Origin: Bacillus weihaiensis | GTDB lineage: Bacteria > Bacillota > Bacilli > Bacillales > Bacillaceae | Reading direction: 5' to 3' | Assembly: GCF_001889165.1 (NCBI RefSeq) | Contig: NZ_CP016020.1 | Span: 3,632,501-3,696,500 of the forward strand | DNA length: 64,000 nt | The notes under the pieces: model-generated | Database searches by the model: none | Told to the model about the DNA's origin: nothing | Seen by the model: the letters and a program-made list of their open reading frames with translations, nothing else | Program-made: the position numbers and the translations under genes | Shown here: one piece after another, positions 8,633-12,083 of the stretch | Numbering within the stretch: the first letter of the stretch is position 1 | Layout: the number at the start of each line of letters is the position of its first letter

Positions 8633-9427
8633 TTATTTTGGTTGATCTGATGTGACAAATCCGAAAGATGCGTGGTCTTGAAGTGGTATCCATGCGCCAA
8701 TTCCTTGAGATGTGATGTTTTTGACGACGATGCTCTTTTTGTTCCCTTTTAGGACAAGGTAAACTTCGCCATATGTGACTTTGCCTTTTTCATTCACAGC
8801 TGGTGCGTACGCATAGAGATAGCCTAGCTTTTTTGGTGGAATGTTGTACACCTGATCTTTTTTCGTACCTGCTCCGATGATTGTTTCAAAGGATAGTGGG
8901 AGGCTTGTTTTTTGCATGGCCTTAAGAAGCATCATCGTTTTGACGTCCTCTGCTTTTGGAACCTTTGCCGTTAGCCCACCTTTAATTGACTTTTGTGCTT
9001 CCTGCTTGTAGTGAATTTGAACAGGCGATTTTCCACCGCGATTGTCCTGGTAATTCGTGTTGATCTTTTGGTATTCCCAATTTGTTGTGGTTTCGGTTGA
9101 TTCGTAATTTAGCGCCCATTGGCCCAAATAGATCGTCGCTCGGTAGCCAAAGGCAAGTGGTGCATCAGAGATCGTCGATTCATTTAGAATCTTGATTAGA
9201 TCTGGATTTTCAATTGGCACTTCAGATGAGTCAATTAACTGTTGCGTTAGCTCACTTGGCTGTAAATATGGCATATCTTGAGTTGGATTTGGATAGGTAT
9301 TTTCTTTTGAAATGTCCATAACTGAGCTAGGAATTTTAGGCTTTTGTTCCTTGCCCTCAGCAAAAACAGCTCTTGAAAAACTAACGGATAAAAGCAAAAC
9401 TAAAGAAACGAGCAAAGCTTTTTTCAT
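8633..9427 (-). CDS. yfkD: YfkD family secreted protein
   Basis: The start at 9427 follows GGAG, giving a 264-residue protein with a signal peptide (MKKALLVSLVLLLSVSFSRA, cleavage near VFA-EG). An upstream in-frame ATG has no comparable site. The mature part is rich in beta-type, Gly/Tyr-containing segments and has no catalytic motif I recognise. It matches the B. subtilis YfkD family, whose function is not established. It is 62 bases downstream of a YczE-type membrane protein gene on the same strand and may be cotranscribed with it. Confidence 0.85.
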   Translation of the reverse strand: MKKALLVSLVLLLSVSFSRAVFAEGKEQKPKIPSSVMDISKENTYPNPTQDMPYLQPSELTQQLIDSSEVPIENPDLIKILNESTISDAPLAFGYRATIYLGQWALNYESTETTTNWEYQKINTNYQDNRGGKSPVQIHYKQEAQKSIKGGLTAKVPKAEDVKTMMLLKAMQKTSLPLSFETIIGAGTKKDQVYNIPPKKLGYLYAYAPAVNEKGKVTYGEVYLVLKGNKKSIVVKNITSQGIGAWIPLQDHASFGFVTSDQPK

Positions 9428-9489
9428 TATTTCTACTCCTTTCAACATGCTTATCCATAGTCTTTTCAAGTATGTTTTTGTTTATCCAA

Positions 9490-10095
9490 TTATTTTTTGC
9501 TTAATGCTTCAAAGCGTTTTGAAACAGGTCCATTGAATAATTGGATGATGGGACCGATTAAAAAGGTGATGATGATGGTACCTACTCCAATTGGTCCGCT
9601 TAGAAGAAAGGCTAAAAGTAAGGCAAATAGCTCGGTAATTGTTTTGGCAACCATTAAATTCATATGAAAGCGTTCATGAAGGGATAGCATGAGCTGATCG
9701 ATCGGATTAGCCGGAAATGTAGATTGTAAGTAAAGGGAAACACCAAATGCAATCAACAGGATTCCACCCACAAGCGCCAGAATCTGAGGGCCAAGTGTGT
9801 TAAATTCAATGTTTCGTAGAACAAAAATCATCCAGAAATCAACACTAAATCCGATTAGAAATAACGTCATTAATGCTAGAAATTTTGGTTTTGCATGTTG
9901 AATAAGTGCATTTACAAAGATCAGTATGATACCGACAATAATGACCCAGCTTCCAACTGTGAAGCCGATTGTTATTGAAAGTCCTACGTTTAAGGCATCC
10001 CAAGCTCCTGCCCCTAAGTCTGCCTTAATCGTCAATACAACACCTAGCCCGATTAAGATAAGTCCAATTGTGTAAAAGCTAATTTTTGTTTTCAT
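9490..10095 (-). CDS. YczE/YyaS/YitT-type integral membrane protein
   Basis: The 201-residue protein is almost entirely hydrophobic with about five to six membrane helices. It carries the family pattern IKADLGAGAWDALNVGLS near the N terminus and NPIDQLMLSL in the second half. These proteins are of unknown function; the family includes B. subtilis YczE. AAGGGGAAATG precedes the start. It is transcribed towards yfkD and divergently from the small RNA unit at 10141-10300. Confidence 0.8.
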   Translation of the reverse strand: MKTKISFYTIGLILIGLGVVLTIKADLGAGAWDALNVGLSITIGFTVGSWVIIVGIILIFVNALIQHAKPKFLALMTLFLIGFSVDFWMIFVLRNIEFNTLGPQILALVGGILLIAFGVSLYLQSTFPANPIDQLMLSLHERFHMNLMVAKTITELFALLLAFLLSGPIGVGTIIITFLIGPIIQLFNGPVSKRFEALSKK

Positions 10096-10140
10096 TCTTC
10101 ATTTCCCCTTTACTAGCTGTGCGAAAATTCTAACAGATTA

Positions 10141-10169
10141 TTTACAGTGATTCTCGTTTAGGGTATAAT
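10141..10169 (+). promoter_or_regulatory. Sigma-A promoter of the small RNA unit
   Basis: TTTACA (10141-10146) and TATAAT (10164-10169) are separated by exactly 17 bases, one mismatch from full consensus. It is one of the best sigma-A promoters in the window, yet no open frame follows. Confidence 0.85.
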
Positions 10170-10175
10170 AAACCT

Positions 10176-10300
10176 ATACAAAAGAGTGTCTCTAGATGTA
10201 GGTAGCATTATTTTGTAAACGTTACCAATATCTGTAGTTTTACTGTTTCGTCCTACACATAGATAAGACTCTGTGCCCCTAGCACAGAGTCGTTTTTTTT
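10176..10300 (+). ncRNA. Predicted structured small RNA (about 125 nt) convergent to chaA
   Basis: The unit starts at the promoter at 10141-10169 and ends at a strong rho-independent terminator (ACTCTGTGC with GCACAGAGT, then T8 at 10293-10300). It has no useful open frame. Two foldings compete. In one, GGTAGC (10201-10206) pairs with GTTACC (10221-10226), extended by AGAT/ATCT. In the other, TCTA-TGTAGG (10191-10202) pairs with CCTACA-TAGA (10252-10263), and this longer helix can run into the 5' arm of the terminator. The terminator loop holds CCCCT, which could pair with a ribosome binding site. I do not recognise the RNA family. Readthrough would be antisense to chaA. Confidence 0.65.
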
Positions 10301-10313
10301 GTACGTTCATTCT

Positions 10314-11369
10314 TTATAGTAAGTAAAAGCCTATTCCCATAATAACATAGGCAGCTAGCAAAGTGGCACCTTCAAACCAGTTTGTGTCTCCGTCATTTGT
10401 GATGGAGATGGTAAGGAGGACTGCTGTTGCCATTGAAATTAGTTCTGGTAATGTAAAAACAAGCGGCATTTTCTGATCGAAAAATAATGAGAGTAAAACA
10501 AGTACTGGTGCAACAAACATCGCAACTTGTAATGTGGAGCCTACGGCTATCTCGACCGCGATGTTCATTTTATTTTTATAGGCCATGATGATGGCTGAAG
10601 CATGCTCTGCAGCATTTCCTACGATCGCAACGATAATGACCCCAATAAATAGTTCTGACCAGCCAAATTGTTCTCCGACTACTTCAAACGTATGAACAAG
10701 ATTTTCTGACACGTACGCAACAGCTGCCGTTGATAATAGTAAAATCGTGATTGCTTTTCCTTTTGACCATTCTGGTTCTTCATGCTCTTCTACTACATCT
10801 GATTTCTGCTGATATACTCCGCGATGTGTGACAAGTCTAAAGAATAATGCTGCCAAGTAAAGCACGATTAAGATGATAGAGATTCCCACACTAAGTGATA
10901 ATGTTTTTGCTTCGTTCATTTCCATTGAGAATACTTCCGGAATAACGAAAGCGACAATTACTGAGAACATTAGTAGACCTGAGTTATGGCGCGCGTCGTA
11001 CACATTAAATTCCTGACGCTTAAACTTTAATCCTCCAATGAAAAAGCTAAGACCTGCGACAAGTAAGAGGTTCCCTATAACAGATCCTGTAAGCGAAGCA
11101 AGTACCACTCCTACTAAGCCTGCCTTTAAAGCAAAAATTGAAATAATCAGCTCAACTGCGTTACCAAATGTCGCATTAAGGAGACCACCAATTCGTGGAC
11201 CTGCGACTATTGCAAGACTCTCAGTTGCTCTCCCCATAAACCCAGCTAATGCAATAATGGTTAAGCAATAAATAATAAACATTAGGGTTGAAGACCAATG
11301 AAGAATGCTCCCTACTACGGAAAGCGGCACTCCAATCATGACCATGAGTGTAAATAAACGATTGACCAA
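10314..11369 (-). CDS. chaA: Calcium/proton antiporter (CAX family)
   Basis: I choose the TTG at 11369, because AAGGTGA lies 5 bases upstream; this gives 351 residues, the length of B. subtilis ChaA/YfkE. The protein exports calcium in exchange for protons. It has about eleven membrane helices and the two CAX repeats with acidic signature segments: GGLLNATFGNAVELIIS in the N-terminal half and VAIVGNAAEHASAIIMA in the C-terminal half. A short acidic loop (VVEEHEEPEW) separates the halves. Its 3' end faces the small RNA terminator. Confidence 0.92.
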   Translation of the reverse strand: MVNRLFTLMVMIGVPLSVVGSILHWSSTLMFIIYCLTIIALAGFMGRATESLAIVAGPRIGGLLNATFGNAVELIISIFALKAGLVGVVLASLTGSVIGNLLLVAGLSFFIGGLKFKRQEFNVYDARHNSGLLMFSVIVAFVIPEVFSMEMNEAKTLSLSVGISIILIVLYLAALFFRLVTHRGVYQQKSDVVEEHEEPEWSKGKAITILLLSTAAVAYVSENLVHTFEVVGEQFGWSELFIGVIIVAIVGNAAEHASAIIMAYKNKMNIAVEIAVGSTLQVAMFVAPVLVLLSLFFDQKMPLVFTLPELISMATAVLLTISITNDGDTNWFEGATLLAAYVIMGIGFYLL

Positions 11370-11490
11370 TTGTATCACCTTATTTTCCAATGGATTAGTA
11401 AGTAGACCCTATTTTGTATTATAATCCTTTCATTTAAGTGAGGAAAGTTTATCCTTTTTTAATTTCTTTATGGGGAACGTATGATTTTAG

Positions 11491-12011: not shown

Positions 12012-12052
12012 ACGTTAAAGGAGCGGGGGCCTGGCCCCCGCTCCTTTAACGT
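12012..12052. repeat. Perfect 41-base palindrome with GGGGGCC-T-GGCCCCC centre
   Basis: A 20-base arm beginning ACGTTAAAGGAGCGGGGG is repeated as its exact complement around a single central T. It lies between the convergent stress and OsmC genes and could act as a terminator. It shares the GCCTGGCCCCC string with the palindrome at 21021-21064. Confidence 0.9.
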
Positions 12053-12083
12053 ATTAAAACATATTTCTCTTTCCCCAACACCC

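What the first reader, a model, noticed from the sequence alone, without database searches (positions are those of the whole stretch)
10141..10313. Free-standing structured RNA unit with a switch-like fold, convergent to chaA
A near-perfect sigma-A promoter (TTTACA-17-TATAAT) drives about 125 bases that end at a T8 terminator, with no coding potential. Two long-range pairings compete, and the longer one can reach into the 5' arm of the terminator, as in riboswitches. However, no sense gene lies downstream. Readthrough would be antisense to the calcium/proton antiporter chaA. This could be a trans-acting sRNA (CCCCT loop) or a regulated antisense switch for chaA. I do not recognise a known family.
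Basis: partly seen in the sequence, partly recalled or inferred. Interest (0 to 1): 0.72.

Follow-up and report, generated by a model that had tools for sequence, protein, structure and literature searches.

The report
Undescribed conserved small RNA in Metabacillus
Between two genes of a bacterium of the genus Metabacillus lies what looks like a separate small-RNA gene, kept almost unchanged in one half across related species and without a match in the RNA-family library; it looks more like a sugar-controlled regulator of other messages than a switch for its neighbour.

Summary
The unit is real: promoter TTTACA-17-TATAAT (10141-10169), a predicted RNA of about 125 nt (10176-10300) without a sense ORF, and a strong terminator. 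No Rfam family reaches its threshold. It is conserved in 19 of 20 sampled genomes of the window's genus (Metabacillus), in sister genera and, diverged, in four other families, beside yfkD/yczE, chaA or both. The core GTTTCGTCCTACA is exact in 20 of 21 genomes of the genus and 0 of 44 of genus g6.

The switch is not supported: the pairing that reaches the terminator is strong only in the window (z -4.3) and weak in 17 of 18 relatives. Conserved instead is a 3' arm (92% identity) masked by a drifting 5' arm (52%); their complementarity holds in 17 of 19. The RNA persists in 7 of 28 testable loci without chaA in the flank, against a chaA antisense role. All 20 RNAs of the genus carry a perfect CcpA cre motif (0.0035 expected by chance).

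Best reading: an undescribed trans-acting sRNA, probably under catabolite control. Against it: no transcript data, no covariation, and a target scan no better than shuffled seeds.

The parts
10134..10146 (+). extended -35 element CAGATTATTTACA (TTTACA is 10141-10146); (T)CWGAATATTTACA is the usual form in relatives
   Evidence: such an element with a -10 16-18 bp on (17 in all but one) in 53 of 56 loci, 15 of 16 lineage groups; the search pattern itself defines part of the consensus, and L019, L025, L028 and L032 of the genus have diverged extensions. Also seen in loci found by core or BLAST without using the promoter.
10164..10169 (+). -10 element TATAAT
10176..10300 (+). predicted small RNA, about 125 nt; start inferred from promoter spacing, end from the T-run
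   Evidence: no transcript data available
10176..10210 (+). 5' arm: drifts in sequence but stays complementary to the 3' arm
   Evidence: 52% mean pairwise identity over 19 sequences; fold-back z <= -2.05 in 17 of 19
10211..10257 (+). highly conserved 3' arm
   Evidence: 92% mean pairwise identity over 19 sequences (alignment)
10213..10227 (+). TTGTAAACGTTACCA, perfect match to the CcpA consensus WTGNAANCGNWNNCW, inside the transcribed region
   Evidence: 20 of 20 RNAs of the genus match, 0 of 14 others; 34 matches in 1.2 Mb of own genome, 0.0035 expected per 125 nt; consensus as quoted in PMC10989752 (passage)
10245..10257 (+). core GTTTCGTCCTACA, candidate base-pairing seed
   Evidence: exact in 30 of 80 family genomes: 20 of 21 in the window's genus, 0 of 44 in g6
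10267..10300 (+). intrinsic terminator GACTCTGTGC..GCACAGAGTC with T8
   Evidence: stem nearly invariant in alignment A1
10314..11390 (-). chaA/yfkE, calcium/proton exchanger, convergent neighbour; not part of the unit
9490..10095 (-). yczE-like membrane protein gene, divergent neighbour; not part of the unit
   Evidence: NCBIfam YczE at 104 bits, below its cut-off of 205

Best explanation
It is a stand-alone, trans-acting small RNA gene. A sigma-A-type promoter makes a 125-nt RNA ending at its own terminator. Its 3' half is a highly conserved arm ending in GUUUCGUCCUACACA; the 5' half folds back on that arm and leaves UCCUACACA open just before the terminator. The open and masked pyrimidine-rich stretches most likely pair with mRNAs at or near ribosome-binding sites. 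In the window's genus a CcpA cre motif within the transcribed region probably makes the RNA catabolite-repressed, by roadblock. Shown: promoter and terminator sequences, conservation pattern, fold-back complementarity (predicted), cre match. Inferred: transcription, CcpA binding, antisense action, targets.
For: Convincing matches in 25 of 59 sampled relatives, 19 of 20 in the same genus; 26 strong hits in 80 family genomes, own included. The core is exact and single in 20 of 21 genus genomes and absent from 44 of 44 g6 genomes; the only extra exact copies in the family are four, inside reading frames of two sister genomes. In g2, g4, f78 and f80 the 5' domain is short or different while the core, or in f80 its GUCCUACA part, keeps its place between promoter and terminator, as for an exposed seed. 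3' arm 92% against 5' arm 52% identical; fold-back z <= -2.05 in 17 of 19. cre in 20 of 20 genus RNAs. Kept without chaA in the flank in 7 of 28 testable loci.
Against: No transcript evidence. Target search did not support it: 1,056 predicted gene starts in 1.264 Mb scanned with a 20-nt seed gave best energy -19.4 against a mean best of -20.3 for 20 shuffled seeds; the wobble complement of the core occurs 9 times in the genome (one is the gene itself) against 5 for the control and at no clear gene start. RNAalifold finds no covarying helix. The fold-back fails in L023 and L024. The GUUUC part of the core is paired in most predicted folds of the genus. The cre is absent outside the genus (0 of 14) and lies in an arm that is conserved anyway, so its conservation cannot be credited to CcpA alone. 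One genome of the genus, G010, lacks the RNA.
Confidence: 0.6

Rival explanations
1. Regulated antisense or riboswitch-like device for chaA: a ligand or pH flips the RNA between the fold-back and a pairing that opens the terminator, and readthrough silences chaA.
For: In the window the alternative pairing is strong (-17.7 kcal/mol, z -4.3) and touches the terminator's 5' arm; the exchanger gene is convergent and close.
Against: In 18 relatives the same pairing has z between -2.14 and +0.94, 17 of them above -1.5. The RNA remains without chaA in the flank in 7 of 28 testable loci. No Rfam riboswitch match.
Confidence: 0.06
2. The RNA works mainly on other small RNAs, like the CcpA-controlled sponge RosA of B. 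subtilis or, as suggested, RsaI of S. aureus, not on mRNAs.
For: The same locus in several other families carries, behind a like promoter, longer RNAs with G-rich motifs (AAAGGAGG, GGGAGG, GGNTGGTGA), and f11/f20 RNAs carry both G-rich and C-rich motifs; RosA has three G-rich regions and is CcpA-repressed (PMC8216469).
Against: The window RNA and its genus have no such G-rich region; what is conserved is pyrimidine-rich. Homology of the long forms to the short one rests on locus, promoter, terminator and intermediate forms, not on alignable sequence throughout. A model of the long form gave only weak matches in the family (best 19 bits, E 0.0034).
Confidence: 0.15
3. The conserved letters are DNA sites (operators for CcpA and another regulator of the divergent yczE-yfkD genes); the transcript is incidental.
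For: cre motif; a conserved extension beside the -35; yczE is divergent and starts 46 bp from the -35.
Against: The core sits between promoter and terminator in fixed order with variable spacing in the forms examined; the terminator stem is itself nearly invariant; complementarity between the two arms is kept while one arm drifts.
Confidence: 0.12
4. The RNA binds or sequesters a protein, and the core is the protein's site.
For: Central letters of the core are invariant in 18 of 18 aligned sequences and no mRNA partner was found.
Against: No Rfam family match; predicted structure around the core differs between lineages.
Confidence: 0.07

Closest known systems
RosA (S345) of Bacillus subtilis (PMC8216469; abstract, outline and passages seen)
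   Same: Stand-alone sRNA with a sigma-A promoter, an intrinsic terminator and a CcpA site; longer RNAs at this locus in other families also have several G-rich regions.
   Different: RosA is about 225-229 nt with three G-rich regions and sponges RoxS and FsrA; the window RNA is 125 nt with none. RosA's genome position and sequence were not found in the passages seen, so homology was not tested.
RsaI (RsaOG) of Staphylococcus aureus (as described in PMC8216469)
   Same: CcpA-regulated sRNA; a C-rich region for mRNA targets plus G-rich regions resembles the f11/f20 forms.
   Different: Described there as conserved in Staphylococcus but not in Bacilli; the window RNA has no G-rich regions and no Rfam match.
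RoxS/RsaE and FsrA (C-rich sRNAs, as described in PMC8216469)
   Same: Pyrimidine-rich regions that pair with mRNAs, for RoxS at ribosome-binding sites.
   Different: No Rfam match at gathering score; the core is UCGUCCUACA, not runs of C.
PyrR binding site (RF00515), weak Rfam hit
   Same: Similar hairpin-terminator layout.
   Different: 23.3 bits against a gathering score of 54, E 0.28; the next genes are not pyr genes.

Membership tests
Any Rfam 15 family | score at or above gathering threshold | tested here: not met
   0 matches in the window and in 13 relatives' loci; the only match at E<=5 in 10080-10330 is PyrR at 23.3 bits against 54
Riboswitch / transcription-attenuation leader | sense gene directly downstream of the terminator | tested here: not met
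   the next gene, chaA, is antisense
Riboswitch / transcription-attenuation leader | conserved alternative pairing that competes with the terminator | tested here: not met
   z -4.3 in the window; 17 of 18 relatives above -1.5
RosA-type sponge | G-rich regions complementary to C-rich sRNAs | tested here: not met
   none in the window RNA or its genus by inspection; present in longer RNAs at the same locus in other families
RosA-type sponge | CcpA repression through a cre at the start of the gene | tested here: inconclusive
   perfect cre motif at +38 of the predicted RNA, not at -1 to +12; binding not tested
RosA-type sponge | sequence homology to B. subtilis RosA | not tested
   RosA sequence not at hand; the long-form model R2 gave only weak matches in the family
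Trans-acting base-pairing sRNA | own promoter and terminator, no ORF, kept independently of the convergent gene | tested here: met
   sequence features only
Trans-acting base-pairing sRNA | conserved unpaired seed | tested here: inconclusive
   core conserved; UCCUACA unpaired in the predicted folds of the 5' domain, GUUUC mostly paired
Trans-acting base-pairing sRNA | mRNA targets with matching sites | tested here: inconclusive
   no excess over shuffled seeds in 1,056 gene starts
Trans-acting base-pairing sRNA | a transcript of the predicted size | not testable with these tools
   no expression data

The most novel reading that the evidence does not exclude
One old small-RNA locus of the Bacillales, fixed by its promoter, terminator and neighbours, has changed sides in evolution: in several families it makes a long G-rich RNA of the sponge kind, in f11 and f20 an RNA with both G-rich and C-rich motifs, and in Metabacillus and relatives a short RNA that kept only the pyrimidine half and so would bind mRNAs instead of C-rich sRNAs, under catabolite control in Metabacillus.
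Probability: 0.17. Interest if true: 0.65.

Novelty: new member of a known kind. Interest (0 to 1): 0.45.

Why it matters
It adds an apparently undescribed sRNA gene, with a 13-letter core exact across several genera, to a group in which (as I recall) few trans-acting sRNAs are known outside B. subtilis, and it links that RNA to carbon catabolite control by a cre motif. The same locus in other families carries RNAs with G-rich motifs like those of the known sponge RosA, so it may be a traceable case of an sRNA gene changing its pairing partner while promoter and position stay fixed.

Tried and rejected
Riboswitch for chaA: rejected (pairing peculiar to the window; RNA kept without chaA in the flank). 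CCCCU loop as seed: rejected, the loop varies. Column-wise covariation: RNAalifold on 19 sequences gave 5 pairs, none with both sides changed; the 5' arm cannot be aligned reliably. Coding: no sense ORF of 20 aa. Known RNA: Rfam. Mobile element: no match in plasmids or phages at E<=0.01. Copies of the core elsewhere: extra exact copies in the family lie in reading frames of two sister genomes; the exact hits in G038, G403, G469 and G525 and four foreign hits of the named scan (L123, L125, L126, L132) show no promoter-core-terminator unit. Weak R1 hits that I looked at and judged bare terminators: L066, L068-L071 and L150, L151, L153, L155, L156; the other weak R1 hits were not looked at one by one. 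Target search by wobble complement and by hybridisation was inconclusive; the strongest seed hit lies before an alkaline phosphatase gene (Pfam) but is no better than shuffled seeds. Long-form model R2: 77 of 80 family genomes had a match at E<=0.5, best 19 bits and E 0.0034; of the 30 loci fetched, none has a cre motif and one has a promoter-like site near the match (a crude script check), so I take them for ribosome-site-like matches. The second check changed no score. Literature: no held paper had yfkE with Bacillus and small RNA, yfkD with noncoding RNA and Bacillus, chaA with yczE and Bacillus, or the core string; S345 gave only PMC8216469; Metabacillus with sRNA gave 4 papers, of which I saw abstract, outline and passages of one, unrelated, and the other three only in the listing. 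Papers in subscription journals are mostly not covered.

Full report
WHAT IS THERE. The window holds, on the + strand, TTTACA (10141) - 17 bp - TATAAT (10164-10169), a stretch of about 125 nt and a terminator with stem 10267-10291 and T8. The RNA folds at -36.1 kcal/mol (z -4.64), but much of this is the terminator; 10176-10262 alone gives z -2.12. No sense ORF of 20 aa. Neighbours: a YfkD-family gene (8633-9469; PF14167), a yczE-like gene (9490-10095, divergent; NCBIfam YczE below its cut-off) and chaA, a calcium/proton exchanger (10314-11390, convergent). No Rfam family reaches its gathering score anywhere in the window.

CONSERVATION. A DNA search of the own genome and 59 relatives gave 25 relatives with a convincing match (E below 1e-4), including 19 of 20 of the same genus; the further matches that make up the tool's tally of 46 of 60 at E<=1 are short and I take them for chance. 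A model of core plus terminator (R1, from 18 sequences) gave 26 strong hits, own included, in 80 family genomes (E <= 1.3e-9). The tool's tally at E<=0.01 is 41; of the 15 others, five are at the locus (G017, G021, G029, G032, G035), G091 is a bare terminator, and the rest were not looked at. A named scan with the 19-letter pattern YTGTTTCGTCCTACACAWW found 16 stretches: 12 labelled Metabacillus or Bacillus sp. (for example M. litoralis, M. indicus, M. halosaccharovorans, M. arenae) and 4 from unrelated organisms, in which the letters stand without the unit.

The exact 13-mer GTTTCGTCCTACA occurs in 30 of 80 family genomes: 20 of 21 in the window's genus, 6 of 7 in g4, 3 of 6 in g2, 1 of 1 in g5, 0 of 1 in g3 and 0 of 44 in g6. 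In 12 of 12 g6 loci examined (L107, L108, L110-L119) yfkD and chaA lie close together with no such unit. In 199 genomes of the order the 13-mer was found in 10: four of the family, two of f78 that are members, and four in which it stands without the unit.

LOCUS. Of 29 member loci examined, 27 have yfkD in the flank (not L064, L065, both g2); 21 have chaA, one (L017) ends with the contig, and 7 (L010, L011, L013, L014, L018, L023, L032) have the RNA without chaA in the 1.5-kb flank. Whether chaA lies elsewhere in those seven genomes was not tested.

ANATOMY. In 19 sequences of the genus the 3' arm (alignment columns 38-86) is 92% identical on average and the 5' arm 52%. Despite this drift the 5' arm stays complementary to the 3' arm: fold-back z against mononucleotide shuffles is -2.05 or lower in 17 of 19, not in L023 and L024; whole-domain fold z is -2 or lower in 11 of 15. 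RNAalifold finds no covariation: this is complementarity against a nearly invariant partner, not classical covariation.

OTHER FORMS. The g2 RNAs are short (74-87 nt in the 5 measured) and keep GTTTCGTCCTA in 6 of 6 loci, three of them with a change in the last two letters of the core. g4 and g5 have other 5' hairpins. Outside the family, forms with the core or part of it: f78 (2 of 4 genomes), f80 (L217, GTCCTACACA), f11 (L148, L149, L154, L222) and f20 (L152), the last two with RNAs of roughly 180-220 nt that also contain GGAGG motifs and TTACCTCCTA or a variant of it. I searched ChaA in 199 genomes of the order (100 with E <= 1e-100) and fetched the 3' side of 80 of these 100. In 17 of the 80 the promoter element with a 17-bp spacer lies in the gap; 13 of the 17 have AAGGAGG soon after the predicted start (sequences), and eight whose GACTCTG-like terminator the script delimited are about 190-350 nt. 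The other 63 showed no such promoter, which says nothing about genomes where the RNA lies elsewhere. The search pattern defines part of the promoter consensus, so its information content is partly ascertained. That these longer RNAs are homologous to the window's RNA is inferred from place, promoter, terminator and the f11/f20 intermediates. Rfam: the only three matches at E<=0.5 in 14 such loci have E 0.09-0.22, to microRNAs and an Enterococcus sRNA, far under their thresholds.

CATABOLITE CONTROL. TTGTAAACGTTACCA at 10213-10227 matches the CcpA consensus WTGNAANCGNWNNCW (as quoted in PMC10989752). All 20 RNAs of the genus match, none of 14 others; the three substitutions among the 20 fall on N positions; 34 matches in 1.2 Mb of the own genome, both strands, mean 0.0035 expected in 125 nt. 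Repression by roadblock is recalled as a CcpA mode and not tested. RosA of B. subtilis is CcpA-repressed and RsaI of S. aureus CcpA-regulated (PMC8216469, passages).

TARGETS. Not found. The full wobble complement of the core occurs 9 times in the genome (one is the gene itself), control 5, none at a clear gene start. Hybridisation of a 20-nt seed to 1,056 predicted gene starts gave energies like those of shuffled seeds (best -19.4, before an alkaline phosphatase gene). An earlier scan of 357 gene starts (400 kb plus the window) with a 56-nt piece had a best hit of -35.6 before a binding-protein-dependent transport permease gene, against a mean best of -30.3 for 20 shuffles; with the seed alone it ranks second at -18.8. 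Only 28% of the genome plus the window was scanned and conservation of sites was not tested.

VERDICT. A conserved and apparently undescribed small RNA gene; trans action by base pairing under CcpA is the likeliest mechanism but remains inference. It is a new member of a known kind.

Noticed in passing
window 12015-12053: Long inverted repeat (GTTAAAGGAGCGGGGGCC / GGCCCCCGCTCCTTTAAC) between a pyridoxamine-phosphate-oxidase-like gene and an OsmC-like gene (Pfam); its GGGGCCTGGCCCC centre occurs 3 times in 1.2 Mb of the own genome, both strands.
   Followed up: partly
L025 and L028, 3' of the core: In two genomes of the genus (G017, G008) the usual GACTCTGTG terminator is missing and other sequence with GGGGTCTGA / CCCTC-type repeats follows; the core and 5' domain remain.
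   Followed up: no
L162, L183, L201, L207, L210, L225, L229, L233: Long RNAs predicted at the yfkD-chaA locus of other families with repeated G-rich motifs (AAAGGAGG, GGGAGG or GGGGG before ATG and TATCGA, AAAGGNTGGTGA; not every motif in every one), in no Rfam family at threshold.
   Followed up: partly
chaA of G030 (L099), G027, G499, G399 and G402: The tool reports one in-frame stop within the match of chaA in these genomes.
   Followed up: no
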